Both the position numbers and the translations under genes were made by a program. Shown here piece by piece: positions 3,252-63,400 of a stretch of DNA of 64,000 nt; the stretch's first letter is position 1; the number at the start of each line of letters is the position of its first letter. The notes under the pieces were generated by a model, which worked only from the letters and a program-made list of their open reading frames with translations, did no database searches and was not told where the DNA came from. This DNA comes from Closterium sp. NIES-65 (taxonomy: Eukaryota; Streptophyta; Zygnematophyceae; Desmidiales; Closteriaceae), in the NCBI GenBank assembly GCA_948144175.1, contig CANXME010000398.1, positions 511,001 through 575,000 on the forward strand, written 5' to 3'.

Positions 3252-6200
3252 ATGGCGAGGTATGTGCGCATCGCACTCCACGACAAGTTATCTGTGTGAT
3301 TCTGAATGTTCTTTTGTCTCTCCCGCGGATCTTGGTCTGTTGATTTCTGTTTCGTTGAAAGGTCTGCGTTTTTTTTTTGCTTCGACTGTAAGCTCCCTTC
3401 GTTCGCCGTACTCGTGTTCAGTTGACTCGTCTACCTCAATTTTATTTCCCCGTTCCTCGCCCGCTCTCCCGTCCCCCCCTCCTCCCCCCAGCCTCCCCCC
3501 TCCCACCCCCCCGCCCCTTTTCCTTCCCGTCCTCTCCCTTTGCTTCGACTATTCGTATGCACCCCTAACCTGTCACCGTTTTGCCGATTGACATGTTCAA
3601 TTCCCGTGTGATTCTTATATTCTGACCGTTTCTTTTTTTCGTCAGCCCCCAACATGGCGAGGACGGCCGCGTCGACCCAAACTTAGTAGACTTTGACGAC
3701 TATGGCGACGCGGACCCGCAAGGCGCTGCGGACGTAGGAGGCGGAGGTAACGACAACGATCACGGTAACGGTAACGATAACGACGACGACGCGTACTACG
3801 ATGCGCGGCTCTTTGAGGACGAGGAGCCCGACGAGCGCGGCGGCAGGCGGCTCGTGAAAAAAGGCGGCGGCGGGGGGAGGGAAGACGAGGAGGAGCGGTG
3901 GGAAGAGGACGAGGGCGGAGAAGGAGTGGGGGGAGCGGACCCGTGGGACCGGAGGGATAGGGGGAAAGGGGGGAAGCGGAAGAAGGGTAAGGAGGGGCGG
4001 AAATCGGGGGGGAGGCTGACAAAGGTGAAGAGGCCACGAGGGGGTGAGGAGTGGGGCGGCGGCGGAGGCGGGGGAGGGTATGAGGAAGGCGGGAGAGAGA
4101 CGTGGGACCAAGGACCGGCGAATTCCGAGGTGAGGAAGGGGGAGGATTGAGGAGAGGAAAGCTTGTGGGAAGCCGGCAGGGCGGGAGATTCGTTCTCTCT
4201 TCCATGCCGTCACTACTCCCCCTCGTCTCTCGTTCCCTCACATCATGCCTCCTTTTCTCTTTGCTGTCGCTTTCTTCCTCGTTTCTCCCGCTCCCTCCTT
4301 TGCTCTCTCCCCCCCACCCTTCTTATTTCTCTTTGCGGCCTCCCCCTCTCCCCCCCCCCCCCCCCACCCCCCTTCCCCCCCTCTTTTCCTCCACTCCTCT
4401 CTGCCCCACCGTCTCCCCACCGTTAATCACCCATTTGCATCCTCTCTCTGGCTCCAATCGCTCCGTCTGTCTTCGTCGGGCCTACAATTTCCCCCCCAAT
4501 CCCCCGCCCCCTCGCCTATTCCTCGTCAATTTTCGCCAACCCCGCTTCCCTCCGCTCCGCCCTCCCGCGACTCCCCCTCCCCCCCCCCCCCCACCCCCCC
4601 GCGCGCGCGGCATCAGGAGGACGTGGAGGGCGCGCGCACGGGCGAGGACGACGCGTTTATCGACGACGCGGGCGTGCATCCGGACGACAGGCATGCGATG
4701 GGGTACGACGAGTACGACGACCAGCGCATCTCCCACGCGCCGCAGGTGCGTCTGGGGGGGATTTCTGGGGGGACTCTGGGTGTTTGGGGAGGATTTGGGG
4801 GGAGTTGGGAGGGGGGGGGGAAAGCGGGGGGGAGGGATGGATTGGGGGGGGGATATGTAGGGAAGGGGGTGGTTGGGAATCGGTGGAGGTTTAAGGGGGA
4901 AGGGAGGGGGAATTTGAGGGAAGGGTGGGAAGGGAGGGTGGTGGGAAGTTAAGGCGGGGCGCTGCTAAGTGTGTGGGAAGGGAAGGCGGGGAGAAGATGC
5001 GTGTGTAGATTCGAATCAAAGGAATCGCCTTCTCCCCTTTCCCTTCCTGCATCACACTCCCTGTGCGTGGAAGCCTGAGGAGGACAGACAAAGTGGTGCG
5101 GCTGTCCCAACCAAACCCTCCTTCTTCCCCTTATCCATTCCCCCTTTCCCCAACTCCCCTTCCCTGCCCCCCGGTTTCCTGCATCACACCACACTCCCGT
5201 TCCCTGTTTCCTCTCCCCTTTCCTTGCAGGCGGAGGAGGAGGACGAGGTGGGGGTGGGGCCGCTGTTCCAGGGTGAACTGTTCAAGAAAGAAGCGGCGGC
5301 AGCGCACCAAGAAGCGTTTGAGAATTCTCAACCGCGACTCACATTACACTCTCGCCCCTTTCCTTGCAGGCGGAGGAGGAGGAGGACGAGGTGGGGCGGC
5401 TGTTCCACAGCCTTGCATTCGCGTAATTCTTCTCCCCCTCCACCCCGCCTCCACCCCCCTCCCCCTTTTCTCCCCGTTCTCGCCCCATTCTCTGGGCAGG
5501 CGGAGGAGGAGGACGAGGTGGGGCGGCTGTTCAAGCACGTTCCATTTGCTTAATCCGTCTTCCTTTTTTCAATCCGTCCTGCATCACTCACACTCGCCCC
5601 TTTCCCTTGAAGGCGGAGGAGGAGGACGAGGTGGGGCGGCTGTTCAAGGGCGGGAAGAAGCGGCGCAACGAGATGAGCGACGGCGAGAAGGCGCTGTTTG
5701 TGGAGGAGTTCCACGCCAAGATGCTCAAGGCCGCCGAGGACGACGCCACCGCCAACCGCCAGCACCGCCCCGCCATTAACAAGCTCAGGATGCTTCCCGA
5801 GATGCTGAATACTCTGCGCAAGTGAGGCACGGGGAGGGGGAGAGGCTTGGGGGAGTTCTGGGGGATTTTGGGAGGTTCTGGGCGGTTCCTGGGGGTTCTG
5901 GGGGGTTCTGGGCGGGGTCTTGGGAAGGGGAATAGGGGATGAGAGGGGCGGGCAGTGGCGGCAGGCTGTCGTCTAGGAAGGCGCTGTTTGTGGAGGAGTT
6001 CCACGCCAAGATGCTCAAGGCTGCCGAGGACGACGCCACCGCCAACCGCCAGCACCGCCCCGCCATCAACAAGCTGCGCATGCTGCCCGAGATGCTCAAC
6101 ACGCTCAGGAAGTGAGGAATTCGGGGGAGAAGGGGTGGGCGGGTTCTGGGGGGGCTTGGGAGGTTCTGGAGGGTTGTGGGCGGGTTCTGGGGGGTTCTGG

Positions 6201-9200
6201 GCGGAATTGGGGGGTTCTGGGGGTTTGGGGGAAGGGGAAGAGGGGATGGGAAGGGCGGGCAGTGGGTGGGGAGGGGGCAGGCTGTTTTTTGATCGAGAAG
6301 GCGCTGTTTGTGGGCGGACAGGCCGCAGAGGACGCCGCGCGGGGGACGTGACGGTGGTTGCTCAAAGTGAGGGTGCTGTGGCGGTTCTTTGGGGGGGAGA
6401 TGAGGGCGGAGGAGAGAGGAAGAGCGGGGAAATGGAAGGGAGGAGACTTTTGAGTCGACTCAAAACGAGGTGACTTCTGAGTCGACTCAAAAGTCACCTC
6501 GGGACGTGACGCAAGTGAGGGTGCTGTGGTGTTCTTTGGGGGGGAGATGAGGGCGGAGGAGAGAGGAAGAACGGGTAAATGGAAGGGAGGAAGGACGCAG
6601 CAGCAGCAGCAGAAGCAGTGTGCGGTTTTTGTTCCTCTCACGCTTCCCACGCTTCCGCTTCCCTCCCTCCGTTTCTCCCTTCCTCCCCTCCCCTCTCCCT
6701 GCCCGTCCCCTCCATCTCTCCCCCTCTGTACCCCTCTCTCCTTTCTTTCCCCCCCAATTGCCCCCTTGCTTTGCCACCCTTCCCCAGGAAGCACCTACAG
6801 CGCGAGTTTTTAGACCGCGGCGAGTTGTCGTATTTCAAGAACTGGCTGGAGCCGTCCTCACGCCGTTCTAGATTGCTCTCACGCTTCCCCCACTCCTGCC
6901 TTCCTCCCACTCCCCATTGCACCCCCTACCACTCCCCTGCACTCCCTTTCCCCTCTGCGCCTCCTACCTCACCTCAGGAAGCACCTACAGCGCGAGTTTC
7001 TAAATCGCGGAGTGTTCTCGTACTTCAAGAACTGGCTGGAGCCGCTGCCTGAGCTTTTCCTCTCGTTCGTCCTTTTCCCCCTTTCACACCCTTTCCCACC
7101 CCTTCCCCACCCCTTTCCCACCCCTTCCCACCCCTTTCCCACCCCTTCCCACCCCTTCCCACCCCTTCCCACCCCTTCCCACCCCTTCCCACCCCTTCCC
7201 ACCACCGTCCCACCACCGTCCCACCGCCGTCCCACCGCCGTCCCACCTCACCTCAGGAAGCACCTACAGCGCGAGTTCCTAGACCGCGGCGTGTTCTCGT
7301 ACCTCAAGAACTGGCTGGAACCGCTGCCTGACCTGTCGCTGCCCAACATCAAGATCCGCACCAGCATCCTCGAGCTCGTTAAAGAGGTGCGTTAAAGTGG
7401 AGGTGGGGGTTGAAAAGGGCGTGTGGAGGGGGAGAGTTGCTGGCTGGAGCCGCTGTCGGACTTGTTGCTGCCCAACATCAAGATCCGCACCAGCATCCTT
7501 GAGCTCGTTAAAGAGGTGCGTTAAAGTGGAGGGGGGGAGAGGGGGGGGGGGGGGGGGTATGGTTGGGGAGGGGGGGAACGGAATGGGAAGGGGGGGAAAG
7601 GCGGGGAAGAGGGACGGGGAAAAAGCGGGGAGAGGGGTTGGGGGGGAGGTGGGGAGAAGGAAGAGGGGATAAGGTTACTGGGGTGTATGTAGGGAGTGAG
7701 TTGTTGGCTGGAACCGCTGCCTGACCTGTCGCTGCCCAACATCAAGATCCTCACCAGCATCCTCGAGCTCGTTAAATAGGTACATTTGGGGGGGGGGTAT
7801 GGTAGGGGAGAAGGGGAAATAAACTGGGGTGAGGTGGGGATGGAGGGCGGAGCAGGGGAAGGGCGGACAGGGGGAGAGGGTGGGAAGAAAGTAACAGGGA
7901 TAAGGTGAATGGGGTGTGTGTGTGGAGGGGGAGGAGAGTTGGTGGCTGGAGCCGCTGGCCAGCTGCCATACCTGCCCCTGCTCCTTCTTTCTGCCCACAG
8001 CTACCAATATGTTTCCACTCTAACGTCCCTCTGCCTGCCGCTCTCCATGTTCCCTGCGGCCTCCCCTATCGTTGTTCCCTTCCCTCCCTCCCTCCCCATG
8101 CCTCTCGCCCCCACTCCTTCCGGCCGCAGTTACCAATAGACGTGGGAGGCAGCCCGGAAAGGAGGAGACAGCTCAAGGAGAGCTCTTCCCCCTTTCACCC
8201 ATCCTCTGTTGTTGCGTCTCCGCCCTTGCCTCCCTCCTTTCGCCTCCCCGTCCTTCTATCCGCAGTTACCAATAGACGTGGGAGGCAGCCCGGAAAGGCG
8301 GAGACAGCTCAAGGAGAGCGGGTTGGGCCGGGTGAGTGTGAGGGAGAGGCGTGAGGTGGGAGTTGGGTGGGAGGGTGGGTGTGGGGAAGAAGTCTTTATG
8401 CGTAGAGTGTCTTTATGTGCACCCTCTGTGCACCCTCTGTGCACCTTCTGGGAGGGTGCAAAGTTGTAGATTGTCTCTGTGCACCCGGTCGGTCCGACTC
8501 CCCACCCGGTCGATTCGTCAACCCCACCCGGATGACCCGGATAATCCGGTTCCCCGTCCGGATCACTATCCGGTTGGTCTGGTTCCCCACCCGGTACCGC
8601 ACCCAGTTGGTCTGGTTCCCCACCCGGTACCGCACCCGGTTGGTCTGGTTCCCCACCCGGTACCGCACCCGGTTGGTCTGGTTCCCCACCCGGTACCGCA
8701 CCCGGTTGGTCCGGTTCCCCACCCGGATGACCCGGATGATCAGGTTCCCCATCCGGATGGTCTGGTCGATCCGGTTCCCGACCCGGTACCCCACCCGGAT
8801 GGTCCGCCTCCCCACCCTGGACCGGGTCGATCCGTTTCCCCACCCGGATGACCCGGATGACCCGGATGATCCGGTTCCCTGTCCGGACAGTCCGGTTGAT
8901 CCGGTTCACGGCTGGTCGGTCCTGCGCTTTCTTCAATGAAAGTGGGTTGGTCTGGGTGAGGGGAGTGAGTGTGTGTGGGGTGTGAGGACCTCGGTTCTGT
9001 CTCTCGGCTCTCGTTCTGATCCAACGGCCCTCCTTGCGAGGGACCTGGTCGACAATTTCTCATTCTTTCTCCGGTGACCCACCTCACCCTTCTCTCCCTT
9101 ATCTCCCCCTTCAAACCCCCTCAACCCCCTCACCATTCACTCCTTCTCACTCCCCTCGCCCCTCTCACCCCCCCGTCCAGGTGGTGATGTTTCTGTCCAA

Positions 9201-12200
9201 GCTTCCAGAGGAGACGGTGCAGAACAGAAATCTCACTGATGTGCCTTGAAAAGCTTTTCCAAATCTCTCCCCACCTTTCTCCGCCACTCCTTACCTCCCC
9301 TCCCTCTCACCCCCCGTCCAGGTGGTGATGTTTCTGTCCAAGCTGCCAGAAGAGACGGTGCAGAACAGAAAGCTCGCGAGGGATCTGGTCGACATGTGGG
9401 TGCGTTGCTGCCTTGCTGCAAGGGGGCAGGGGGGGTATTAAGGGGGACACAAGGGGTGGGACAAGGGAGGGCACAAGGGGGGGGCACAAGTGGGCACAAG
9501 GGGGGTCAAGGGGGGTCAACACAGAACAGGAAGCTAGCAAGGGACCATGGGGGAAACAGAAAAGGGGGTGCGTTGCCTGCTTGCAAAGGGGGTCAATGGA
9601 CCATGGGGGAAACAGAAAAGGTTGCGGGATGGGGGGCAAAGAGGGGACAAGGGGAAAACTGGAAGCTAGCGAGGGACCTGGTCGACATGTGGGTGCATTG
9701 CTGCCTTGCAAAGGGGGGTGTTGCCACCTTGCTGCAGGGAAGGGGGGAGAAGGAGGAAGGGGAGGATGGGGGGTCGGAAAAAAGGGGAAGGAGGGCTTTT
9801 TGGGAGTGTGCAGGGTTGCCTTAGCAGTTGGGGGGGTTGTGGGTGGGAAAGAAGAAGAGCACTCACTGTTGTGAGCTAGGCCGAATGAGGGCCTTTAGCT
9901 GCTGGGTTTTTTTGTAGGCGCTTCAAAAACGACCTCAATGGGGGGGTTGTGGGTGGGAAAGAAGAAGAGCACCCACTGTTGTGAGCTGAGCCGAAGTGAG
10001 GGCCTTTAGCTGCTGGTTTTTGAGTCCACCTGCTTTCACTTCTTTGCTCTCCACTTCTTCTGCTCCCTCCCTCCCCCCGTTTCATTCGCGTCCATTTTTT
10101 TCAAGAGCATGCACGAACGTGATTTAGGAGGAGCATGGCATCTTAAATGATAAAACAATTCCTCTTGCCCATTCCTCTCTTCCCCACCCCATCCCCCCCC
10201 CCCCCCCCCCTTCCCCTCCTCCCTCCCCTCCCCCTCCTTCCTCCCCATCGCCCCCTTCCCTTCTCTTTCCCCTGCAGTCACGGCCCATATTTGAGAAGAG
10301 CACACACTACCGTGACTTGAGGAACGACTATGACCGACCCACACGCCCTCCACCTTCACAGAGGTTAGTACGACAAGAAGCAGCAACTCTTGGTAATATG
10401 TGCCTCCAATTGAGTTGTGTTAGTTTGTTGTGGGCGTTTTCTAATTACTCAAGAGAATGTGCGTTGCGAGTTGGCACTGAGCAGCTCAGCCGATTGTGTG
10501 AGGCTTGCAAACCGACTGCGCACGCTCGTGTGCGGAGAGTGAGGTCATGTGCGCGCAACTTCCCCCACCCGCTCATGTGCGCGCTGGTCATGTATCGGCG
10601 CAATCGCGGCCTGATGATTTAGATTAAAAGAAACTCTTGTTCTTTGTCAAATTCTTCCAACCCAACCAACACCCTTTGCCCTCTCTCCCTGTGTTTATGG
10701 CATGCAGGGAAGATGCGTCAGCGCATGTGTCGTCGCACTCGCGGCCTGACGACCTAGATCTAGACAACGCCGGGTGAGTTACGATGGGTCACTTGAGAGT
10801 CAGCACTGGGTGGGCTTTGGGTCTGCGTTGGGTGAGCTTTGGGTTGAGTTGGGATGGGAGCTTTTATGGCTCCTTTGTGTCTGCTTCAGGTGTGCTGTGT
10901 TCCAGATGTCTTCCAGCTGTGTTCCAGCTGTGTTCTGGCTGCTTGCCGCTGTGTTGTGCCGGCTGAGTCCCCTCCCTTCTCCCCTCCTCATCCTCCCTCC
11001 CTCCCTCCCTCCCTCCCTCCCTCCCTCCCTCCCTCCCTCCCTCCCCCCCTCCCTCCCTCCCTCCCTCCCTTCCTCCCTCCCTCCCTCCCTCCCTCCGTCC
11101 CTCCCTCCCTCCCTCCCTCCCTCCCTCCCTCCGTCCCTCCCTCCCTCCCTCCCTCCCTCCCTCCTCTCACTCACTCACACACTCGCTCCTTCGGCCTTGC
11201 CCTATCTCTCGCTCACTCCCACACTTTTCCCTTGACTCTCCGTCCGACCTGTTGACTTCCGGGTGACGCAGGGAGGCGAGGGGGGAGGCGGAGGAGGGGC
11301 CGGGGAAGAAGCGGGTGATGACGCGCGTGCCACAGCCCATGGCCATGGACTTCCGAGTGCGCCCCGAGTCCAAGGTCACCGAGGAGATGCTGGCTCGGCG
11401 CGGCCAAAAGGACGCCAGACACCAGAGCGTGAGTGCCGTGGGGTGCGGTGCAGTACGGTGGGGTGGGGTGGGAGTGGGAATGGGGGGAGATGGGAATGGG
11501 GTGATGGACTGCTGAGTGCCACCACTCCGAGTCCAAGGTCACCGAGGAGATGCAGATGCTGGCACGGGCGTGGCCACAAGGACGCCAGACACCAGAGCGT
11601 GAGTGCCGTGGGGTGGGGAGTGAAATTGGGATTGGAGTGGGAATGGGACTGGGATTGGTAGTGGAATACGGTGGGGTGGGGTGGAGTGCGGTAGTAGTGG
11701 GAACGGAGGTGGGAGGGTGGAATGGGAAGGAAGGGGTGTGCGTCAAAGCGTCTTAATGTGGGGGGGGGACGAGGATGCCAGACACCAGGGACGGTTGTTG
11801 AGGAGTGGCAGTCCAAGGTCATCAAGTAGATGCTGGCACGGCACGGCCACAAGGACGCCAGACACCAGAGCGTGGGTGCCCTGGGGTGTGGTGTGGTGGA
11901 GTGGGTTGGAATGGGGTAAGGTGCAGTAGGAGTGGGAATGGGGTAGGTGGGAATGGGAGGTTGGAAATCAGATCGTGGCTAGGGGAATGGGAAGGCAGGT
12001 GCGTGCTTTGCGTGGTTTCGATGCTCGGGCATTACGGTGTTAAATACCGAAACGTGAGTGGGAAGGGGAGGGGAGGGGACAAGGGAGGGTAGAGGAGGGA
12101 GGCCAAGGGAGTTGTTAGCATGGGGATATGTTCTCACTGGTATTGATTCTATTTATTCTGCTTGCTGGTGGTGCTGTGGCACAGGTGACCAAGAAGCTCC

Positions 12201-12283: not shown

Positions 12284-12440
12284 GCCCAGTTTGCCTAGCA
12301 TTCATTTGTGCTGTAATCTAAGCCTTGTACACATTAGAATTGTGAGCATCCGTCGATCATAAGTGACTGGGCGGAGCTGGAAGTGTTGGTGATCATTCAT
12401 TTGTGAATATTGGGGTAGTGGTGACATTCACATCTGTGAT
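12284..12440. other. IWS1 3' flank and LINE target duplication
   Basis: Short AT-richer stretch after the IWS1 stop, probably its 3' UTR. Positions 12429-12440 (CACATCTGTGAT) are repeated exactly at 25761-25772 and form the LINE target-site duplication. The LINE therefore landed about 150 bp past the stop codon. Confidence 0.75.
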
Positions 12441-12559
12441 ATTTTTTTTTTTTTTTTTTTTTTTGGAATTGGAGTATACATTAAAGAGGACAATGCATAC
12501 AGCAATAGCAGTCGTAACTGAGCGTGAGGGCAGGCACCTTGCGCTGCCCAGCGAGACAA

Positions 12560-15500
12560 CTAGGGCGGTTGGAGAGCCCTCTTGGGTCTGTTCCAGATGG
12601 CCGCAAAGCTGTCCGACCAGCCCCACTTCCTGTCTCCGACTTTCCTGATCCTCATCAGCATCTTTTGTTCTGCTTCAAAAACCCCCCTAACCTTTTTGAG
12701 TTTCCCCAGCTTGCCCGGCCTCACAACTTTCGCCCCAGTCACTCTTGTGTACACCCTTACGTGCAGCCGGAAAGCCGTCCCGATTCTCCTGAGCACCCGC
12801 CGGGCTCTGAATTTTTGCCCACGGAAGCTCGCCTCGCAGCGTTCCACCCACAACTGGTGGAAGGTGATGGCCGTTAGTGTAGCCTCTGGGAAGTCTGACG
12901 TGGTACCAGTTTCCTGGAACAGTAGATCACCGAGCGTGGCAGATGTCCTTGTGGGGTTGAGCATGCGCAGAGCGCGCCAGAGACCAGAAACCACAGGCTG
13001 AATCACCGGGCAGCTAAAAAGGCAGTGATCCTGTGTCTCAATCTCTCCACAGTACGGGCACTTCGGCTTACTGCTGAGAAAATCCACCCTCTCCCCAACC
13101 TGAAGGTTGTGGTTGTGTATACGCGTAAGGACATCACGCGGTCGGTTCGGGATGGCAAGCGAGTTTCTGGTGTGGATAATTCGGTCCCAGTCTATCTTCC
13201 CGCTCCACTTGCCGACCCACTTCTCCTGCTTCGTGGAGACCGCGACTGGCACAGCCCACGATTCCCTCAGCTGCTTCAGGGATGACAGCTGCCCGTTCGT
13301 GAAAATCCCCGAACGAAAAATTGTAGCCGCTGCATGTTCGCCACCGCCGCTGTTCCCAGACGATTTTTTCACCCCAGATCCAGCCCCCTTGCCACTGGCA
13401 TCCGGGATGAGCACTTCCTTCCATTCCTGCGGGGCTGCATCAAGTGCTTTGAGAGCCAGCCGGGCTGAGTCCCTGCTACGCAGCTCCCGCTCAAGCGTAT
13501 CCATGTCCTTAATCTCCACCGTACCGTCCTGACGCGTGGTTACCAGGTCACCCAGCCTCGTCCCCCAGAGGCCCTTAGCCTCCTTTTGTCCACCCACTGG
13601 GTTCGTGCAGTTCAGAAGCAGCTTCCGGTTAAAAACCACCCTTTCTTGCGCCACCTCCTCTTTGCTGTCTGACTTCCCAGTGTCCGCCATCGGGGATTTC
13701 ATGAAAGTCTCGCATGTCTGTAACCAGCGCTCGTTTTCTCCCGGCCAGTGCTTCAGCAACCGTTCATGAGCCAGGAACGTGTCCTCTCCGAGCGGTAATC
13801 CCGCCGCCTTGAGCGTGATTTCCCTTTTTTTTTGGTTCTTCTCCAGCAGCAAGCAGCCAATCCTTCTCGCGGCAAGGCAGGCGAGAAGCACTCCTGGGTC
13901 CAGAACTCCGAGACCTCCGTCGGCTTTCGGCGTGGTAAGCAGCCCCCAGTTCCACAGCACAAACCCTTTCTCAGCCGATGCATTGTTCCCCGTTAAGAAA
14001 TTGTGAATCAGCTTAACGAGCTTCTTCCAGATCTCCTCTGACGGGGGATAGACCTGCGCCTGGTATGCTATTCTCGGTGTGATGTAGCAGTTGATAATCA
14101 CAACCCTCGCCGCAATCGTGAGGAAGAGCGCCTTCCACTTAATCAACTCCACTATTATTTTTTCAAAAGCCCGCTTCCAGGTCGGCTCACTGCTTCCAGA
14201 GGGGGTGACCCAGACTCCCAGGACTCTCTCCGCTTCGTCCGCATTGGCCCATTTAAAGCCGCCCAGCGTCCTTGGTCTCCTCCCAATGTTGTGGCCGATC
14301 GGGAGGATCACCGATTTGCCCTTGTTCGTCTGCAGCCCTGACAGTCCAGCAAACCAGGCTAACAGCTTCTCAGCCCTGGCGATTTGTCTTTTCCCATCCA
14401 AAAAGAGTGTCGTGTCGTTCGCGTAACCGACATACGCTAACCGTTGGTTTGCCTTGTTGCAGAGACCAATCTTCCGACGCTCTGCCTCTTGCGCCAGCGG
14501 TTCCACCGCGCAGAGAAACAGGTACGGAGCGAGTGGGCAGCCCTGTCTCACCCCCGACTTAACTTCCACTGCTTCCCCCAGCCAACCGTTGATTAATAAC
14601 CTTGTTCTTGTGTCTTTGTGCAGACCTTCCACCCAGCCGACGAATCTCTCTGGGAAGCCCATTTCCTTGAGGGTGCTGAAAAGGAAGCTTCTAGACACCG
14701 AGTCGAAGGCCTTGCGGAAATCTACCAGCAGCATGTACCAGTCTTTATTCCCCTTTTTCGCCGCCTCAATAACATCAGCAACCACACCGATGGCCTCCGA
14801 GATTCTCCTGCCGGGAATAAAGCCGTACTGCTCCGCCGAGATCACCTTGTGCAGGTGCATCTTCATCCGGTTCGCCACCACCCGCGCCAGCACCTTGTAC
14901 GTGAAGTTCAGAAGTGTGATCGGACGATAGTTGTCTAGATTGTCCTTCTCTCCCTTTTTATGGAGCAGAATAGTAATCGCTTCTTTGATGCTTGCAGGAA
15001 TGGTTGCTGAAACCGAGAAGGATTGCGCCATGCGGAGGAACTCCTTGCCGAGGACATCCCAGTGTCTTTCAAACAGCTCTTTCGGGAGCCCATCCTTCCC
15101 GGGTGATTTGCCGTCTGCAAGCGCTTTGATGGCCTGTTTAGCCTCCTCTTCTGTCCAATCTGCTGCGAGCCCAGCCGCCGACTCTGCATCCAACTTTCTC
15201 CCAGCAAGCGGTTTCCACCGCTCTGTTGATGTCCGACCGTCAGTGCCGAAAAGGTCCGTGAAATACTGCGTCGCGGCCGTCAGAATCCCGGGTGAGTCAG
15301 AAATCTTGACGCCTCCCACCTTCAGCTCTGCAATCTGTGTCTTCTGCTTCCTGACCTTGACTCTCGCCGATAGGAAAGGCGAAGGGACCTCCCCAGCTAA
15401 CTCCGCATCCGTCCCTGTCATCACGTGAAGTCTGTCCCGTTTTGATGCATGGTACTCTCTCAGCTGCGCGTCCCTGACGTGAAACAGATCACTCGTCTTT

Positions 15501-16567
15501 AGACAGCTCGGGTTGCGCATCTGCTCCTGATGTAGCTCCGCCACTACCTCCGCCAGATGAGCCGTTGTTTTCTTTACTCTTTTGTTCTCCTCCTTCATGT
15601 ACGCACGTAAACCAGCATTGAGCCTCCCAAGTAGTAACTCGAAATTACCATCTCCATCCTCAGCCGCTTTCGCCAAGGCAGCCTCTACCGCTTTCCGAAT
15701 TCCAGGCCTGCCCAGGGCTGCTGCATGCAGTCTCAAGATGCCAGGACCCAGGTGAGAAGATGCTTTTATTTTTAAGGCGATTTTGATCCCAAATCCATGA
15801 TTTGAGATGTACTCCTCCGGCCGTATGTGTGCAGCTATATCAAGATGCGGGAGCAGCGAGCAAGAAACTAGCGCGCGGTCAATGCGAGAGCTGGATTGCT
15901 TGGATGCAGCGTAAAAGGTGTACTCTCTGAGCTTAGGGTGAAGCGTGCGGAAAGCGTCTGAGAGTTGAAAGCGGTTGCATCTTGAAATAAGCCTGTCGTT
16001 TTCTAAGGAAGTGCCTGATTGTGACGTCCGATCTAAAACTGGGTCTTCTACCATGTTCAGGTCTCCCAGGAGAACTACGTGGTCAGTGGTGGGGATCTGG
16101 TCAAAAGCCGGGCCGACAACGTTCTTCAAAAAAGAGCATCTGTCAGTGGCATCTGCGGGAAAGTAAGCAGCAATGAGGGTAAGAGTGAAATCGAAGCGGC
16201 TAGCGGTAGTTACTATCAGTCTCCCTGATGGGTGTGTGCTGGTGTTCGTGAGAAGGACGGAGGGATCCCTGGTAAGAACGGCAACGCCGCCGGCTTTATC
16301 AGTGGGTGGCGTTGTGAGGACTGTGGTGAAGGATGGAGTTTTCCAGTAAGTGTGGTTATCCGGAAGTCTTGTGTCTGTGAGAATGATGATGTCAGCTGCT
16401 GTTCTAATCCAGGTTGAGACTCTGTCTTGCTTTGTTTTGTCACCTAGGCCGTTGACGTTAAGGCCTGCTAAGGAGAAGAAATTTTTGTTACTCATTTGAT
16501 AACTGCCTGGAGGCCCCTGTTCATCCACAGGCCGAAGATGGTGACAACACTGACTACTGCACTCCAC
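12560..16567 (-). CDS. LINE ORF2: endonuclease-reverse transcriptase
   Basis: A 1335-codon uninterrupted frame. It starts MSNKNFFSLAGLNVNGLGD (residue 25 onward), the beginning of an exonuclease-endonuclease-phosphatase domain with GDLNMVEDP at about residue 170. RT motifs follow: LPKELFERHW, YRPITLLNFTYKVLARVVANR, EQYGFIPGR, LLVDFRKAFDSVSR, GVRQGCPLAPYLF and the palm motif YANDTTLF. Near residue 1160 is CPYCGEIETQDHCLFSC, a zinc-binding box common in plant LINE proteins. The active-site box should read (F/Y)ADD; here codon 14417-14419 reads AAC, giving Asn717 in place of the first catalytic Asp. The protein is probably unable to polymerise, although the frame is otherwise open. Confidence 0.92.
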   Translation of the reverse strand: MECSSQCCHHLRPVDEQGPPGSYQMSNKNFFSLAGLNVNGLGDKTKQDRVSTWIRTAADIIILTDTRLPDNHTYWKTPSFTTVLTTPPTDKAGGVAVLTRDPSVLLTNTSTHPSGRLIVTTASRFDFTLTLIAAYFPADATDRCSFLKNVVGPAFDQIPTTDHVVLLGDLNMVEDPVLDRTSQSGTSLENDRLISRCNRFQLSDAFRTLHPKLREYTFYAASKQSSSRIDRALVSCSLLPHLDIAAHIRPEEYISNHGFGIKIALKIKASSHLGPGILRLHAAALGRPGIRKAVEAALAKAAEDGDGNFELLLGRLNAGLRAYMKEENKRVKKTTAHLAEVVAELHQEQMRNPSCLKTSDLFHVRDAQLREYHASKRDRLHVMTGTDAELAGEVPSPFLSARVKVRKQKTQIAELKVGGVKISDSPGILTAATQYFTDLFGTDGRTSTERWKPLAGRKLDAESAAGLAADWTEEEAKQAIKALADGKSPGKDGLPKELFERHWDVLGKEFLRMAQSFSVSATIPASIKEAITILLHKKGEKDNLDNYRPITLLNFTYKVLARVVANRMKMHLHKVISAEQYGFIPGRRISEAIGVVADVIEAAKKGNKDWYMLLVDFRKAFDSVSRSFLFSTLKEMGFPERFVGWVEGLHKDTRTRLLINGWLGEAVEVKSGVRQGCPLAPYLFLCAVEPLAQEAERRKIGLCNKANQRLAYVGYANDTTLFLDGKRQIARAEKLLAWFAGLSGLQTNKGKSVILPIGHNIGRRPRTLGGFKWANADEAERVLGVWVTPSGSSEPTWKRAFEKIIVELIKWKALFLTIAARVVIINCYITPRIAYQAQVYPPSEEIWKKLVKLIHNFLTGNNASAEKGFVLWNWGLLTTPKADGGLGVLDPGVLLACLAARRIGCLLLEKNQKKREITLKAAGLPLGEDTFLAHERLLKHWPGENERWLQTCETFMKSPMADTGKSDSKEEVAQERVVFNRKLLLNCTNPVGGQKEAKGLWGTRLGDLVTTRQDGTVEIKDMDTLERELRSRDSARLALKALDAAPQEWKEVLIPDASGKGAGSGVKKSSGNSGGGEHAAATIFRSGIFTNGQLSSLKQLRESWAVPVAVSTKQEKWVGKWSGKIDWDRIIHTRNSLAIPNRPRDVLTRIHNHNLQVGERVDFLSSKPKCPYCGEIETQDHCLFSCPVIQPVVSGLWRALRMLNPTRTSATLGDLLFQETGTTSDFPEATLTAITFHQLWVERCEASFRGQKFRARRVLRRIGTAFRLHVRVYTRVTGAKVVRPGKLGKLKKVRGVFEAEQKMLMRIRKVGDRKWGWSDSFAAIWNRPKRALQPP

Positions 16568-16607
16568 CCTACAATCGCCAACAGTACACTGTTCTCCTTC
16601 CGCAGCC

Positions 16608-18005
16608 TCAGAAGCTGTAATCCTTCTTCAAACCGGCAAGAGCAGCCTTGTCCATGGAGGCTTTTGTGGCAGTACCCATCTTCTCCTGGTTCAGCAGGTG
16701 AGTCGAAGAGATGATGTGATCCGCCGCAGCCAAGAAAGTTTTCCCCTTCGCCTTCCCGCAGCACACTTGCGTGCAGATCCATTCTTCGCGGTTGCTGCCG
16801 GTCGAGACAAGAGCGATGGATGGATCTTTCAGTATGGGGGTGACGAGAGCGGAGGTAGAGACGCAGCTGCGAGCGCAACAGAGATCGTCAGTGAGAGATG
16901 AGAAAGGTAAGTCTGCGATGTAATGAAGAAAGCTGATGCAGTTACCATTGATACTATGAGCTTTCCCCAAGGTTAGGTTCCACTTCCCTATATTGTTCTG
17001 CCGCTCTGTGATGAACAGATCATGATAAATGTCATAATGCTGTCCATTGCAGAGCTGACAGGACAGTGCAGGGTAGTGGACCATGAGCTTTTCTCCGGAC
17101 CCCATCGGGCTGTCGACCATGTGGCGCCAGCGATAACGATCCCCAGGATGCTGCACGACCAGGCCTTTGATAACATCGGTGTCAGCTCCGGTGAGTGGGT
17201 GAGCCACCCGATGGAAACCAAACCCTTCCTTGAAAGCCGACTGCTGACGCTTCTTCAGTTTGAAACGGACAAGCAGGTCCTTCAAAACATCCGGGACAAT
17301 GTTAGCGGGCACTCGCCGGAACACCACTTCAATAGCAAGGGGACGAGTAGCCTTCTCCTTAAGGTACGAAGCGTTCTCTGTATGCTGCCAGATGCACTTG
17401 ATCGCCGGAGCATTCGCCTTCTGGTACTCAAAAACATGAAACTTGATGTGATGCGCATCCCGTTCGTCGAGGAAGGAGATTTGAAGCCGGCAGAATCGTG
17501 TCTTCGCGACGAAACCAGGTATCATCTCCTGTATGTTAGCCGTCACCCCAGCGTTCTCGGTTAGAGAAGAGCTCCAGACCTTGGTCATCAAAAGACGCAC
17601 TGCAGCAATAATGGCCTTAATCTCCTGAGAAAGCACCATCGGGATGAGTAAGATTGCTGTATAACGAAGACGAAAAGCATCTTCCTTGGCAATGTCGATC
17701 TCCAGCTCTTCATCCTCATCATCCTCCAGGAACTCGTCAAGCACAGCAACAGGAGCCTGGTTGTCTTGAAACTTCTCTTCCACTGATAGTCCAGAACCAC
17801 CGGCGACGTCAGCAGCAGTAGTAGTAGCCGATTCCTTGACGGACTGCGCAGCATTGTCCGTGACTGCATTAACAGTAACCGCATCGTTTGAGCCTTGCTT
17901 CTCAGCCCCATCCACAACAGGAGCCGGCGTGGTGATCGGATCCGTTAGGAGGTCGTCCGGGAGCGTGACCTCAGCAGTGACCTTTGACGACCGTTTAGGA
18001 GGCAT
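16608..18005 (-). CDS. LINE ORF1, probable RNA-binding protein
   Basis: From the ATG at 18005 (MPPKRSSKVTAEVTLPDD) it encodes an acidic, low-complexity N-terminus (LEDDEDEELEIDIAKEDAF) and a folded C-terminal half with SCQLCNGQHYDIYHD, a CX2CX3HX4H arrangement. ORF1 proteins of plant LINEs bind the element RNA. The same frame stays open upstream to 18371 and, beyond the Copia-1 insertion, continues at 25550-25728, where an ATG lies 33 bp from the 5' end of the LINE. Either start is possible. ORF1 ends 41 bp before the ORF2 ATG. Confidence 0.75.
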   Translation of the reverse strand: MPPKRSSKVTAEVTLPDDLLTDPITTPAPVVDGAEKQGSNDAVTVNAVTDNAAQSVKESATTTAADVAGGSGLSVEEKFQDNQAPVAVLDEFLEDDEDEELEIDIAKEDAFRLRYTAILLIPMVLSQEIKAIIAAVRLLMTKVWSSSLTENAGVTANIQEMIPGFVAKTRFCRLQISFLDERDAHHIKFHVFEYQKANAPAIKCIWQHTENASYLKEKATRPLAIEVVFRRVPANIVPDVLKDLLVRFKLKKRQQSAFKEGFGFHRVAHPLTGADTDVIKGLVVQHPGDRYRWRHMVDSPMGSGEKLMVHYPALSCQLCNGQHYDIYHDLFITERQNNIGKWNLTLGKAHSINGNCISFLHYIADLPFSSLTDDLCCARSCVSTSALVTPILKDPSIALVSTGSNREEWICTQVCCGKAKGKTFLAAADHIISSTHLLNQEKMGTATKASMDKAALAGLKKDYSF

Positions 18006-18371
18006 GGTGCGATGATGAGTCTCAGAAAGCAGCCGTTTGAAAAAAGGCTGAGACCAAAAAAGAGCTGATGCTGCTTGAGGACTGAGCACCACCTCCTTAT
18101 AAAAGGTTTTCGGAGCTTGTGACTTGCTCTCCTGAAGGAAGTGATGAATTCCCGAGGTCGTAGCCTTGGGATCATGTCTTGCATAGCGATCAGGAGTGTT
18201 GTTGTTTCTGTTTTTAATTTCATTGCAGTTGCGATGTCCATTGTAGGAGCCTTGGAAACTGCCGGAAGTATCAAGGAACCCTTGAGGTTGGTTAGCTTGA
18301 AATGTGTTTGGAACACTGAGATACCTCTGAGTAGCCGAGGTTATAATGTCCGCGTAGTAGACATAAAATTT

Positions 18372-18481
18372 TGTCAAATGTTGTAGCCTGTAGTGAGGTT
18401 TGTCTTAGGGGGTACAGAAGTTAGGGTTTGTCATATGTACCCCAACCAACATCAATGGAAACACCATTCCTCATTCTGACA
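18372..18481 (+). repeat. 5' LTR of Copia-1 (110 bp)
   Basis: Starts TGTCAAATGTTGTAGCCTG and ends CATTCTGACA. It is unusually short for a copia LTR. The first bases of the PBS (TGGTATCAG, 18482-18490), complementary to initiator tRNA-Met, follow without a spacer. Confidence 0.95.
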
Positions 18482-26702: not shown

Positions 26703-29700
26703 ATGGGGGGCTTCTCGCTGCTCCGCGTGCTCCTGCTTCTCACGGCGGGGATTGCTCTCCTATCGAACGAGCGCCATCAAGCGCGCGCGCAAGACTCCTT
26801 GCCCGAATCGGGCCTGGAAAGACTACCACAATTTGCTAGAAGTTCCAATCTGAATGACTCTACTGTGGCTGCTACTAGTTCCGACGATGTACTCAAAGGC
26901 AGCGATTGCAACGGCGAGAACGGCGGCGACGGCGGCGGCGGCGCAAAATCCGATGATCGTGGTGTGACGGTAAGGAGCTTGTCCAGCGACAACAATCCCG
27001 GCGAGCCGTCGATTGAATCATCGGATGCAAGCAAGGCCGAGAAGAAGGCCGAAAGTAAGAGCAAGAGCAAGGGCGGTGGTGGTCGGAGGAGGACCAAGAG
27101 ACACGGCAGTGGGAGGAAGGTAAAGGCGGGTAAGAGGGGGAAGCGCGCCGCTCTCAGCGGTACGCTGAGCACGGAATTGAGCGATGCCGCGACGGTGGGT
27201 GAAGCGAAGCGAACGAGCACGCCGGGCAGCAAGACGGGCAGTAAGGCGAGCGACGCGAGCAGTAGTAAGAGTGCTAGTGGCAGCAAGGCCAGTAGCAAGA
27301 GCAGCAGCAGTGGCAAGAGCAGCAGCAGTGGCAAGAGCGGCAGCAGCAGCGGAAAAAGCAGCCAGACCAGCAGCGACGCGAAGAGCAAGGACAAGGGGAC
27401 GGAGACCAAGGCGACGAAGGCGAAGGAAGGCAAGACGGCGTCGACAAAGAGCGGCAGCAGCAGCAGCAGCAGCGGCGGCGGCGGCGGCGGCGGCGGGAAG
27501 GTTATCAAGGCCAAGGGGAAAACGGGCGCACAAAGCGTGGAGGACGAGTCGACCTGCGACTTCGGGGAGGGAAGGTGCGTGCGGTTTGAACGTGGTAAAC
27601 ACTCCTTACCATAGTTACATGATTCTGCTGGTTTTTTTCTCTCTTTTATCCTCTCTGTTTTCCCATCAGAAAGCACATGCTGCGGCGTAATCCACGCTGA
27701 GATCGCAGCGCTCTGCTGTTTGACGGCCTGACGGATTCACAGCTCCTCGGCGAGACGGATCGAACACGTTTACTATGAGCAACCAACAGTACTTTTAGAC
27801 GTGCCACCTCAGTACTCGCTCTCCTCCCTTTGTCGCTTCTCCCCCGTGCCCCTGCCTGTGTGCCGTCTCAGGTGGGTGATATCCCCCAACAAGGCCTTGT
27901 ACTCGGGTAGAACGTGCCCCTTTATTCGCTCCAACGAGAACTGCCAGAACTTCTTTTGAGGCGCCTCAAAATTCCCTCTGCCCCTGTGTGTGTGTCTGTG
28001 TGTCGTCTCAGGTGGGTGATATCCCCCAACAAGGACCTGTACTCGGGTAGAGCGTGCCCCTTTATTCGCTCCAACGAGAACTGCCAGAAGAACTTCTTTT
28101 GAGGCGCCTCAAAATTCCCTCTGCCTCTGTGTGTGTGCGTGTGTGTGTGTTTCTGTGTGAGTCGTCTCAGGTGGGTAATATCCCCCAACAAGGCCCTGTA
28201 CTCGGGTAGAACGTGCCCCTTTATTCGCTCCAAGGAGAACTGCCAGAAGAACGGGCGGAGGGACACGGGGTACCTCAACTGGCGCTGGCAGCCGCGCGGA
28301 TGCGACGTTAACCGGTGAGAGGGGACTGTAACAAGTGCGGGAGTGTAGCGATTGCGGTGTACAATAACGGATATATTAGTTGTGCCATGAGTATAGCCGC
28401 GAGTGCGAAGCTTTTTTTCCGTTTCGTTCCCCGTCTTCCGCTGACCCCGTTTCCACTGTTTCCGCTCTCCCTCGTCTAATTCCTCCTTGGAAACTCGAAT
28501 TCCTCTTCCCCCCGGCCCCTCCGCTTCCCCGCTCCCCCGCGCCCCTTCCGCCAGCCTGGACCCCGCGGCGTTTCTTTCCCGGTACCGCAACAAGGTATTC
28601 GCGATAGCGGGCGACTCGTTTTCGTCCAACTTCGGCAACGCCATTCGCTGCTCGCTGCACTCCTATTCGTCAACGGTGGACTTTTCGGGCGAGTTCGGCG
28701 GCACGGACGTGAAGGGGTACCGCGTCGCGCAGTATAACTTCACCTTCCTGCACATCTCGTCCGTCTACTTGGTTGACGCCGAGCCCATTGTAAGTAACGG
28801 AGCAGAGGGGTGCGGTTCGGTACAAGCAGGTGCACGAAGGTGCAGGGATGTGCGGGGAGACGTGAAGCGGTGAAGGGGTACCGCGTCGCGCAGTATAACT
28901 TCACCTTCCTGCACATCTCGTCCGTCTATCTCGTCGACGCGGAGTCCATTTTAAGTAGAAGGTGCAGAGACGTGCGGAGGGGTGCGGTTAGGTACAGGAT
29001 GGTGCAGGGCGGTGCGGGGTGCGTGCAGTAGAGAAGGGGTACCGCGTGGCGCAGTACAACTTCACCTTCCTGCACATCTCATCTCTTTCTCTCTTCTTTC
29101 TTCTTTCTTCTTTCTGCTTTGACTTGTTTGAGACATTTCCAATCTGTCTCACTCGTTTCGCCTCTTCTCTCTTCTCTCTTCTCTCTTCCCTCTCTGCTCC
29201 TCAGGGCGCAGCCAAGAGCTCGGGCGCGTGGAAGGTGTACCTGGATACGCCCCGGGATAAATGGGGTGACATCCTGAATTACCTTGACGTCTTCATCTTC
29301 AGCGCCGGCCACTGGTTCGTTAACGTGAGCGCGCTTCTCCCCCCCACCCCACCCCCCCCTTCCCCCTTTCGCCCCCGACACTCTCTTTCTCTCTCTTCTC
29401 CTTCCGCCACTTTCCATCTCCTTTTCTATCTTTCTATCCCCGTCACTCTCTTTCAATCTTTCACCCCCTCGCTCACGCCCTCCCCACACACTCCCTCCCT
29501 CTCTCTCTAACGGTCCTTTCATCTCTCTATCCTCCCCTCTCCCGCCACCCGTCCACCAGGCACCGTCCAGTCTACGCCAATACTACATAAAGGGCGTGCA
29601 GCAGACGGGGATAACGGGCTTTAAAGCCATGGAGATCGCGCACGCCACGGTTCGCGACCACATAATCCGGTCCCGCTATAAAGGCATCCCCGTTATGCTC

Positions 29701-60433: not shown

Positions 60434-63400
60434 GAAACGAGGATGCTATGCTGGCATGCATGTACTTTCTTCCCGTCCCCTGTGACAAGTATTGCCTCCT
60501 CAGGTACCCTGAACAGAGGGGGTGAAGTAAGGAGGGGGAGAGAAGGCGGAGGGAAGGTGTAAGAGAGAGGGAGAGAGAGAGAGAGAGGGGCAGGGCAATG
60601 AATTGCCTTCTCAGGTACCTGAGGAGAGGGGGTGAAGAGAGGAGGGGCGGGGACAGGGAGAGCAGAAGAGCGAGGTATGTCAAGCGAAGTACGGGCACGG
60701 TCAGTCCAAATAGGAGGCCAACAGGTGTAAGGTAGGGGTGAGCATGAAGGTGATCCGCATCTACCATTTTAGTCAGGAGAGAGAATGGGTGGGGAAGGAC
60801 AAGACAACATAAGTCAACACACGTCAACACAAGTCGACACAAGTCAACACAAGACAACAAAAGTCAACACACGTCAACACAAGTCAACAAACGTCAACAC
60901 AAGTCGACACACATTAACACAAGTCAACACAAGTCAACACAAGTCAGCGACACAAAGTAAACACAGCACAACGAGTCCTGGAATGCTATAGGTTGAGAAA
61001 GGGAGCCTCACGTCGGGCCATGTGGCTGTAATGAAGTCGACTATATCGAGGAGAATGTCCCCCTGCACATCCACCTGCTCCTTCTCCGTCGGTCCCTGCA
61101 AGAGGGGGAAGGGGGGAGGGGTAGGGACGGAGGGGAGGGGGAAGCGAAGAGGAAGGGAAGGAAAGGACAGTTGGAGTAGACTGTATCGAGGAGAATGCCC
61201 CCCTGCACATCCACCTGCTCCTTCTCCGTTGGTCCCTGCGGTGAAGAGGGAGGGACAGTGGTCAGTAGGAGAGAGAATGATGCGGAGAGAGGGATGCGTG
61301 CATGTGTGCAGGAATGCATCGAGGAAGATGCCCCCCTGCTCGTCCACCAGCTCCTTTTCCGTTGGTCCCTGCGGGGGAGGGAGGGAGGGAGGGAGGGAGG
61401 GAGGGAGGGAGGGAGGGAGGGAGGGAGGGAGGGAGGGAGGGAGGAGGAGGGAGGGAGGGAGGGAGGGAGGGAGGGAGGGAGGGAGGGAGGGAGGGAGGGA
61501 GGGAGGGAGGGAGGAAGGGAGGGAGGGAGGGAGGGAGGGAGGGGGGGAGGGGGGGAGGGAGGGAGGGAGGGAGGGAGGGACGGACGGAGGGACGGACGGA
61601 GGGACGGAGGGAGGGACGGAGGGACGGACGGACGGACGGACGGAGGGACGGAGGGAGGGACGGAGGGAGGGACGGACGGACGGAAGGACGGAGGGAGGGA
61701 GGGGGGGAGGGAGGGAAAGAAGGAAAGAGGGACTGAGATAGGAAGCGAGGGAGGGAGGGAGGGAACGGACGGGGAAGTTGAAAGTAGGAGTAAGTGACTC
61801 GGACAGGGGAAGAGAGTGGATGGCGTGCGTGTGTGAGTACGTGTATCTGCATGCTTGCACGCTCGCATGATGCTTGTATGAGCGCATGATGCGTGCATGT
61901 GCCCTTCTCACAGCTGCCATTAACTTTCTTACCGACGACACCCCTACCACGTCGGCTCCGAGTCGACTCAAACGTGACCCTGCGCCACAACCAACCCACC
62001 CGGACAAGCGCAGGAGGGCGATTGCAATGCTGAATCTGTTCTTTGAGAGTTAAAAAAAAATCAGAACTGACATTGCACCGCAACCAACCCACCTTGACCA
62101 CCGAGGCCCCACTGGCAAACTTCTTGCCTAGCTTCTTGGCTGCTTCGGGCAGTTTCACACCTGCACGGGGGCGAGGAAGCGGTTGGGAGGGGTGGGGAGT
62201 GGTGAGGGAGTGGTGTGGTGGTGAGGGAGTGAAGAGAGAGGGTGGGCGATTAACTGTTGAAGGTGTGAAACTCTCGCTCAGGAATTGGGGGGTGAAAAGG
62301 CAGAGCAAGAAAAGATGGGATATGGTTTTGTCTGAATTGCTTTTTGAAGCGCCTCAAAAGGTGAGAGGGAAAGAGGAGGAGGAGGAGGAGGAGGAGGAGG
62401 AGGAGGAGGAGGAGGAGGAGGCAGAGAGTATGGGGATATAAAAGTATTCAAGGCCTTTGATAACTGTGACTGACTTGCATTTTTTAGGGCGCCGCAAGTA
62501 CGAGGGGGAAAGAGGAGGAGGAGGCAGAGAGCATGGGTTTACCTAAGTGTTTGAGGCCTTCGATAACTGTGACTGACTTGCTTTTTTTAAGGCAGCCGCA
62601 AATGCGAGGGGGGAAGAGGAGGAGCAGGCAGAGAGCATGGGGTTACCAAAGTGTTCGAGGCCTTTGATAACTGTGACTGACTTGCGCTTGTTGCGCACTA
62701 TTCGCTCCACCACCACCTCCTTCTTATCCTGCTCATCCCATGCCATGCCATGCCATGCCATGCCGTGTCAGATAAATTGCATGGTAGTAGCGGGGAGTGC
62801 AGTGATGCGGAGGGGGAGGGAGAGAGGTGGAGAGAGATGAGGGAGGTGGGAAGTGGTGACATGGCAGCATGCGCGCGTGGCAAATGGCTTTGGTATCATC
62901 AGTAGCATCAGTAGCATGTGATGTGATGTGATGCAGCAACGGGGCCCTAAACACTCCTAACACGCATGCCCGCACACACACACGACACACCCATGCCATG
63001 CCCATGCCCACACTCATACGTGCCCCCTTGTGCATACCAGCTGCTTACCCCGGCCCCCAGCCAGCTTCTAAGGCATCTCCAAAATCACAAACACACATCC
63101 AAACACACACACACACCTACACACGCGTCCGCGAACCCACGCCCCCGCCGACGCGTCCCCGTGTGCATACCTGCTTCTTGACCCGGCCTCCCGGCAGCTT
63201 CTTGACAGGCTCTTCTGGCTTGGCTGCAGCTGCACTCAGCGAGCGAGAGGGAGAGGGGAAGGGAAGGGAGAGGAGAAGGGAAGGGAGAGAGGAGACATTC
63301 TGTTGATTTGAAAGTCGCTTTTTGACAGGCTCTTCTGGCTTGGCTGCAGCTGCACTCAGCGAGCGAGGAAGGGAAACGAGAGGGGATGTTAGAAAGCAAG

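What the first reader, a model, noticed from the sequence alone, without database searches (positions are those of the whole stretch)
27954..28114. Palindrome TTTTGAGGCGCCTCAAAA inserted exactly at both duplication seams of TBL exon 2
Two truncated exon-2 copies each end at the same 18-bp perfect palindrome, after which the preceding intron is repeated. The palindrome is missing from the intron before the first copy and from the intact exon. It was therefore added when, or after, the tandem duplications formed. I know of no described element of this kind; a repair footprint, a minimal palindromic insertion element or a site-specific recombination product are all possible.
Basis: seen in the sequence. 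Interest (0 to 1): 0.88.

Follow-up and report, generated by a model that had tools for sequence, protein, structure and literature searches.

The report
Tiny palindromes between duplicated DNA copies
In this green alga (Closterium), a tiny mirror-symmetric DNA motif occurs at more than 30,000 places, and most of the places examined sit between two copies of the neighbouring DNA, as if a minute mobile hairpin had been inserted with an unusually long duplication of its target; no described element known to me does this.

Summary
A perfect 18-bp palindrome, TTTTGAGGCGCCTCAAAA, separates three copies of an intron/exon-2 unit of a TBL-type gene. It is not private to this gene: the 874-Mb Closterium assembly holds 30,327 TTTTGAG-N4-CTCAAAA sites, against 4 for the reversed control. 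Sampled cores are mostly palindromic (TCGA, ACGT, GCGC, AATT). Of 52 testable sampled sites 48 lie between direct repeats, against 25% of 1,728 random positions. In a small sample not chosen for the motif, 2 of 5 passed. Chance copies in prokaryotes and viruses: 0 of 5. Arrays read U(PU)n. At one locus three paralogous exons have a single U and no P. Outer arms vary between sites but match within a site in three of four families. Best reading: miniature palindromic insertions, about 18-56 bp, captured at staggered breaks whose fill-in duplicates about 7 to over 100 bp of target. When U carries a splice site, an exon hit becomes intronic. What moves the palindrome is unknown. Even in these P-rich stretches 82% of duplication pairs show no recognisable P.

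The parts
27838..27953 (.). U1: first copy of the duplicated unit (intron end + start of TBL exon 2, truncated)
   Evidence: Direct-repeat alignment to 27977-28096; also tandem repeat row 27856-28248.
27954..27971 (.). P1: perfect 18-bp palindrome TTTTGAGGCGCCTCAAAA
   Evidence: Exact match; palindrome scan.
27972..28096 (.). U2: second copy of the unit, truncated at the same place
28097..28114 (.). P2: second perfect palindrome
28115..28252 (.). U3: third copy, continuing without palindrome into the intact exon
28171..28314 (+). Intact exon 2 of the TBL-type gene (acceptor AG ends at 28170, donor GT at 28315); a protein annotated in Closterium sp. NIES-64 matches this copy
   Evidence: tblastn of P0001 residues 2-53 to 28160-28315, 94% identity; boundaries read from the sequence.
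5316..5333 (.). AATT-core variant (TTGAGAATTCTCAA perfect) between two copies of an intron/exon unit; weak case
   Evidence: flanking-repeat score reached by 7.7% of random positions.
6448..6465 (.). TCGA-core palindrome TTTTGAGTCGACTCAAAA at a duplication seam
6467..6500 (.). 34-bp near-perfect palindrome GAGGTGACTTCTGAGTCGACTCAAAAGTCACCTC, same seam; shows longer arms of the TCGA family
   Evidence: Sequence; (core at 6475-6492).
9911..9928 (.). Degenerate copy between direct repeats 9829-9910 and 9939-10021
62342..62359 (.). One-mismatch copy just before a 104-bp tandem array; association not significant
   Evidence: fails.

Best explanation
The palindrome (P) is a miniature palindromic insertion, one of about 30,000 in this Closterium nuclear genome. 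A self-complementary DNA piece of about 18-56 bp (TTTTGAG-NN|NN-CTCAAAA plus family-specific outer arms) enters a break whose two strands were cut apart, by about 7 to more than 100 bp. Fill-in of the overhangs duplicates the intervening target (U) and gives U-P-U; unequal exchange or further events then give U(PU)n. SHOWN: dispersed family; U-P-U structure at most sampled sites; n palindromes for n+1 U in arrays; fixed centre with variable outer ends; within-site matching of variable arms in three of four families; single U without P in three paralogous exons at one locus. INFERRED: that P arrives as one self-complementary molecule (hairpin or palindromic duplex) at the moment U is duplicated. 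UNKNOWN: where P molecules come from and which enzyme makes the breaks. In the TBL gene the duplicated U carries the 3' splice site, so the hit in exon 2 would have lengthened the intron and left an intact exon.
For: Genome count 30,327 against 4 for the reversed, non-complemented control. Cores in 54 sampled sites: TCGA 23, ACGT 13, GCGC 12, AATT 2, four singletons. After dropping simple-repeat arms, 40 of 40 perfect palindromes with arms of 10 or more in about 264 kb belong to this family. Flanking direct repeats: 50 of 54; 48 of 52 against 25% of 1,728 control positions; repeats close to P on both sides, 50 of 52 against 22.8% of 400 controls. Arrays, read from the sequence: L011 7990-8155, five P and six U; L014 1439-1668, five P and six U. 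Empty sites: L011 9299 has U of 60 bp, identical in both copies, around P, while two neighbouring paralogous exons and a diverged paralog on C429 (L041) have one U and no P. Arms: left/right outer matches exceed re-paired sites of the same family: TC n=33, 2.39 against 1.31, and AC n=15, 3.47 against 0.80 (0 of 2,000 shuffles each); AA n=6, 3.83 against 1.49, p 0.008. Symmetric long cases: L018 9827 (32-bp insert, U 44), L024 2603 (perfect arms of 26). Prokaryote and viral copies: 0 of 5 with flanking repeats.
Against: The genome is rich in tandem duplications anyway (25% of random positions score), and most seams have no P: 29 of 161 pairs P-like against 4.2% control, 13 of 84 arrays against 6.7%, in stretches mostly picked for holding P. 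Many duplications carry other, non-palindromic inserts, so P may be one kind of captured filler and not a mobile element. In loci not picked for P, 2 of 5 P-like sites passed the repeat threshold, a third had an abutting 15-bp exact repeat just below it, two had none. No insertion polymorphism between near-identical copies: 9 of 9 P shared at 99.5% identity, and 3 of 3 P-like sites shared by L026/L027 at about 98%. Array members and sites on three contigs are not independent. No enzyme or donor was sought or found. The GCGC family, the one in the TBL gene, shows no significant arm matching (0.76 against 0.49, n=17, p 0.11).
Confidence: 0.6

Rival explanations
1. P is passive filler: this lineage repairs staggered breaks (paired nicks) with fill-in and often captures short DNA; P is simply the most abundant captured fragment, not an element with its own mobility.
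For: Many U-X-U duplications carry heterogeneous non-palindromic inserts of about 20-60 bp; by eye 14 of the 50 duplications that one search listed carry P or a decayed P (the listing is not exhaustive; it misses L011 9299, for one). U length is broad, as expected from random nick spacing. Small tandem duplications at breaks with long overhangs are documented (PMC8355091, passages read).
Against: One sequence family at about 30,000 sites needs a specific, recurrent source; every strong palindrome (arm 10 or more) in the sample is this family (40 of 40). Ordinary filler is not a conserved palindrome.
Confidence: 0.21
2. Both ends of a staggered break receive the same short sequence at their 3' ends (templated by a small RNA, telomerase- or retroelement-like) and are joined head to head; the palindrome is the joint.
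For: Would explain why any core is palindromic, why the centre is fixed and the outer ends variable, and why left and right arm lengths differ.
Against: Locus-specific arm variants match within a site, so the same template variant would have to serve both ends; no template RNA or enzyme was sought or is known here.
Confidence: 0.12
3. The palindrome came first and provokes duplications: replication stalling or cruciform cutting at a resident P copies neighbouring DNA.
For: Palindromes are known fork-stalling and cutting sites (recalled); array expansion with P inside each unit occurs.
Against: Arrays have one more U than P; at the one locus where paralogs could be compared cleanly, single-U exons have no P.
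Confidence: 0.1
4. P is an extreme internal-deletion derivative (MITE) of a terminal-inverted-repeat DNA transposon.
For: Palindrome = two inverted repeats with nothing between; high copy number; dispersed.
Against: Outer ends vary and the centre is fixed, the opposite of internal deletion; duplicated target is about 7 to >100 bp and variable instead of a fixed few bp; no longer element with these ends noticed among the 83 half-sites listed (no systematic genome search).
Confidence: 0.06
5. Assembly artefact or chance in a duplication-rich genome.
For: High background of tandem duplications; no raw reads available here.
Against: 30,327 against 4; diverged U copies; 9 of 9 P shared by a paralogous contig of the same assembly.
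Confidence: 0.02

Closest known systems
Short palindromic repeats of Volvox carteri organelle genomes (Smith & Lee 2009, PMC2670323; abstract and passages read)
   Same: Short (10-100 nt) palindromic, dispersed, apparently selfish, in non-coding DNA and introns of a green alga.
   Different: Different motif; there they spread in mitochondria and plastids and the nuclear copies are judged inert; the passages read mention no long duplication of the target around each copy. Here about 30,000 sites in a nuclear-type assembly, mostly with target duplications where sampled.
Small tandem duplications from staggered breaks or paired nicks (Schimmel et al. 2021, PMC8355091, passages read; Vaughn & Bennetzen 2014, seen only as a reference there)
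   Same: Duplicated local DNA explained by fill-in of overhangs.
   Different: No conserved palindrome at the joint is described in the passages read.
MITEs and other TIR transposons (recalled)
   Same: Short, palindromic potential, dispersed, flanked by target duplications.
   Different: Fixed outer ends and fixed short target duplications; here the centre is fixed, ends vary, duplication about 7 to >100 bp.
Bacterial REP elements (search listing only) and yeast mitochondrial GC clusters (recalled)
   Same: Small palindromic repeats in high copy (REPs 20-40 bp).
   Different: Other compartments and organisms; no long duplication of the insertion site known to me.
CRISPR spacer acquisition by Cas1-Cas2 (recalled; analogy only)
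   Same: A short DNA piece is inserted and the target stretch (repeat) duplicated, giving U(PU)n.
   Different: Fixed repeat length and varied spacers there; variable U and one P family here; no cas genes were sought.

Membership tests
MITE / TIR DNA transposon | Defined outer termini in all copies | tested here: not met
   Insert boundaries vary from 0 to about 19 bp outside the 18-bp core; centre fixed.
MITE / TIR DNA transposon | Short target duplication of fixed length | tested here: not met
   U ranges from 7-8 bp (L023 8302) to about 100 bp and more.
MITE / TIR DNA transposon | Longer autonomous relative with same ends and a transposase | tested here: inconclusive
   None noticed among 83 half-sites in about 264 kb; whole genome not searched for it.
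Organelle-type short palindromic repeat (Volvox) | Short palindrome with many dispersed copies | tested here: met
Organelle-type short palindromic repeat (Volvox) | Spread within organelle genomes | not tested
   Organelle contigs were not identified; the copies studied lie in contigs of about 153 kb to several Mb.
Tandem duplication by staggered-break fill-in | Direct local duplication of tens to >100 bp | tested here: met
Tandem duplication by staggered-break fill-in | Joint without a conserved recurrent insert | tested here: not met
   P sites carry one conserved palindrome family.
Chance palindromes in a duplication-rich genome | Same flanking-repeat rate as random positions | tested here: not met
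   48/52 against 25%; prokaryote and viral copies 0/5; small unselected sample 2/5.

The most novel reading that the evidence does not exclude
A new kind of mobile DNA: a gene-less hairpin of about 18-56 bp that spreads through a nuclear genome by inserting into staggered breaks, duplicating a long and variable stretch of target each time. It thereby produces a share of the small tandem and exon duplications, and intron growth, seen in Closterium.
Probability: 0.4. Interest if true: 0.92.

Novelty: categorically new. Interest (0 to 1): 0.84.

Why it matters
If the reading holds, a selfish repeat may be as small as an 18-bp palindrome. The long duplication that accompanies each insertion would be a direct source of tandem exon copies and intron expansion. 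It would also explain how coding exons tolerate hits: when U includes the splice site, the insertion becomes intronic. With tens of thousands of copies and several sequenced sister strains, origin and mechanism can be tested at once by comparing strains.

Tried and rejected
Considered and set aside: the palindrome as private to the TBL gene. Coding conservation (in copies 1 and 2 the exon frame ends in the palindrome, read from the sequence). Part of a longer TIR transposon (83 half-sites look like decayed or truncated palindromes or unrelated hits; not a systematic search). A LINE-made target duplication as a yardstick: no direct repeat was found around the LINE-like element. Non-palindromic inserts of other duplications as a second family: among 23 tested, matches were to neighbouring repeats or short chance-like stretches; the one genome-wide count did not complete. 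Recent empty sites in segmental copies: the TBL query found no other full match in the assembly; the first L011 search was swamped by a repeat; the narrower one gave copies at 99.5% that share 9 of 9 P. Four 10-kb stretches picked without regard to P held no P-like site (about 1.4 expected from the genome average). Viral and prokaryote scans gave few exact matches (0, 0, 1 and 4 loci). Nine literature searches (listings) showed nothing that describes such an element; one search returned no paper. The Closterium genome paper PMC10407611 has no 'palindrom' in its main text (outline and section 7 read); supplements could not be read. A Fusarium mitochondrial palindrome paper (PMC7218506) was checked by passages only: no occurrence of 'duplication'. 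Not obtained, because the whole-genome machine was busy: genome-wide counts of arm lengths, paralogs of more sites, copy number of the other inserts.

Full report
WHAT IS THERE. The window lies at C398:511001-575000 of an unnamed 874,075,685-base assembly of 2,400 contigs. A TBL-type protein encoded here matches one from Closterium sp. NIES-64 at 100% over the aligned part, 32% of the query. The assembly size is close to the 876 Mb reported for strain NIES-65 (PMC10407611, section 7), so I take the genome to be NIES-65 or a close relative (inference). At 27954-27971 and 28097-28114 stands the perfect palindrome TTTTGAGGCGCCTCAAAA. It separates three copies of a unit that joins the end of an intron to the first part of exon 2. 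The third copy runs on into the full exon. The sister-strain protein P0001 matches that copy over residues 2-53 (94%) and carries its residue (KENC) rather than that of copy 1 (NENC), read from the sequence. In copies 1 and 2 the exon frame would end in a TGA inside the palindrome.

NOT A LOCAL ODDITY. In the window, related palindromes with other cores lie at 5318 (AATT), 6448 and 6475 (TCGA), 9911 and 62342. Of six sites tested, four lie clearly between direct repeats, 5318 weakly (7.7% of random positions score as high) and 62342 not (60%), though the last precedes a 104-bp tandem array. In the whole assembly TTTTGAG-N4-CTCAAAA occurs 30,327 times, against 4 for the same pattern read backwards. 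Among 54 sites in 20 fetched 10-kb stretches plus the window, the core is TCGA 23, ACGT 13, GCGC 12, AATT 2 and four single variants. Those 20 stretches were chosen because they hold sites or lie between such stretches, so density there is not representative; four stretches chosen otherwise held none. In about 264 kb, simple-repeat arms left out, 53 of 61 perfect palindromes with arms of 8 or more, and 40 of 40 with arms of 10 or more, belong to this family.

ASSOCIATION WITH DUPLICATIONS. Within 200 bp, 50 of 54 sites have a strong direct repeat across the palindrome. Leaving out two sites too near a stretch end, 48 of 52 pass, against 25% of 1,728 random positions (2,000 drawn, those within 500 bp of a palindrome dropped). 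With both copies within 20 bp of P it is 18 of 52 against 117 of 1,728. With the repeat within 40 bp on both sides, 50 of 52 pass at score 10, against 22.8% of 400 controls. The high control rate shows how rich this genome is in small tandem duplications. The sites are not all independent: three arrays contribute 14 of the 54. Outside control: 0 of 5 prokaryote and viral copies of these 18-mers have a flanking repeat. In loci fetched for another reason, five distinct P-like sites were met (L026 three, L029, L030; L027 is a near-copy of L026): two pass the threshold of 32, one (L026 1668) has an abutting exact 15-bp repeat scoring 30, two have none, one of these an exact match to the pattern. 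So the high rate in the main sample may be somewhat favourable. From the other side, 29 of 161 tandem-duplication pairs have a P-like seam against 4.2% in control intervals, and 13 of 84 arrays against 6.7%, in stretches mostly picked for holding P. So P marks a minority of duplications, while most sampled P mark a duplication.

ANATOMY OF AN INSERTION. U ranges from 7-8 bp (L023 8302: CATTGCC) through 13-60 bp in many cases to about 100 bp and more. Arrays read U(PU)n: L011 7990-8155 has five P and six U, L014 1439-1668 likewise (by eye). The centre of P is constant; the outer ends are not. Examples: L018 9827, GAGTGACTTTTGAGAATTCTCAAAAGTCACTC between 44-bp copies; L011 9299, on the minus strand GACTTTTGAGTCGACTCAAAAGT between 60-bp copies that are identical; L012 8971 and L017 2219, one arm long and the other short; L024 2603 (perfect arms of 26) and L014 5291 (arms of 25 with mismatch), ACGT cores. 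The outer arms deviate from the family consensus in a site-specific way, and yet left and right agree. In 71 P-like sites (96 found, 25 array repeats dropped) the mean outer match is 2.39 against 1.31 after re-pairing among 33 TC-family sites and 3.47 against 0.80 among 15 AC-family sites (0 of 2,000 shuffles each); AA 3.83 against 1.49 (6 sites, p 0.008); GC, the TBL family, 0.76 against 0.49 (17 sites, p 0.11). This points to P arriving as one self-complementary molecule, or to copying of one arm from the other; for the GC family it is not shown.

EMPTY SITES. At L011 9299 the palindrome splits a duplicated exon end with its splice donor. Two paralogous exons next to it and a third in a diverged paralog on another contig (L041) have one U and no P; both U copies of the P site align to the same L041 stretch. 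At L011 6805 both flanking copies align to one L041 region. L041 contains no exact P, against 9 in the compared C6 stretch, of which 7 lie in the part that L041 matches. L041 does hold, by eye, one decayed P-like sequence (TTTTTGAGTGGAATCAAAA) of its own, also between tandem copies. A 99.5% identical copy on contig C1658 shares all 9 of 9, and L026 and L027 (about 98%) share 3 of 3 P-like sites. So these insertions are older than those duplications and are not private errors of one contig; but no recent insertion difference was caught. The TBL query found no other full match in the assembly, so its empty state could not be seen.

INTERPRETATION. Addition of P together with duplication of U explains these facts; resident palindromes that later provoke duplication fit less well (one more U than P; single-U paralogs without P at one locus). 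The closest known process for U is fill-in of staggered breaks, for which small tandem duplications are documented (PMC8355091, passages). The closest known thing to P is the class of short palindromic repeats in Volvox organelles (PMC2670323, abstract and passages), whose nuclear copies are judged inert. A MITE is disfavoured by two tested features: variable outer ends and variable, long target duplication. I therefore describe P as a miniature palindromic insertion, probably captured as a hairpin or palindromic duplex. Where it comes from and what cuts the target are unknown and were not sought. Other duplications here carry non-palindromic inserts, which leaves open that P is one very successful filler and not an element in its own right.

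CONSEQUENCE FOR GENES. In the TBL gene U contains the 3' splice site, at L011 9299 the 5' splice site (read from the sequence, no RNA data). In both, a hit inside a coding exon leaves one intact exon plus a longer intron. Survival of such hits would be favoured by selection; the general frequency was not tested.

LIMITS. No raw reads, no second strain, no RNA. Genome-wide measurements beyond the single count were blocked by a busy server. Claims of absence from print rest on listings of nine searches of an open-access library.

Noticed in passing
28711-29080: Exon 3 of the same gene is also partly duplicated in tandem (period 161, 2.3 copies), with no palindrome at the seam.
   Followed up: partly
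5185-7957, 8071-8319, 11345-12006: Dense run of tandemly duplicated pieces in neighbouring genes, several with a short non-homologous insert between copies.
   Followed up: partly
61000-62050 (minus strand): Repeated copies of a coding piece reading GPTEKE(Q/L)VD(V/E)QG in the open frames; another case of repeated intron end plus exon start.
   Followed up: no
L006-L023 and window, list: Many tandem duplications are U-X-U with a non-palindromic insert of about 20-60 bp; of 161 pairs only 6 had a seam under 10 bp (copies that overlap were counted among the 84 arrays instead). A general tendency to insert short DNA with target duplication?
   Followed up: partly
L014:6164-6469 and L014:7344-7500: Arrays with 24-bp (TTTTGAGGCGCCTAAAAAATCACC) and 20-bp (GACTTTTGAGGCACTTTTGC) units that look like tandemly amplified, decayed palindromes.
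   Followed up: no
L011:2093-2410 and L011:1390-1529: A 318-bp repeat with dozens of matches (most at 78-96% identity) and a 138-bp stretch with inverted repeats at 99-100% identity on three contigs.
   Followed up: no
12440-18404 (minus strand): LINE-like element (named from recall) with two long open frames and a poly(A)-like tract; no target duplication found around it.
   Followed up: partly
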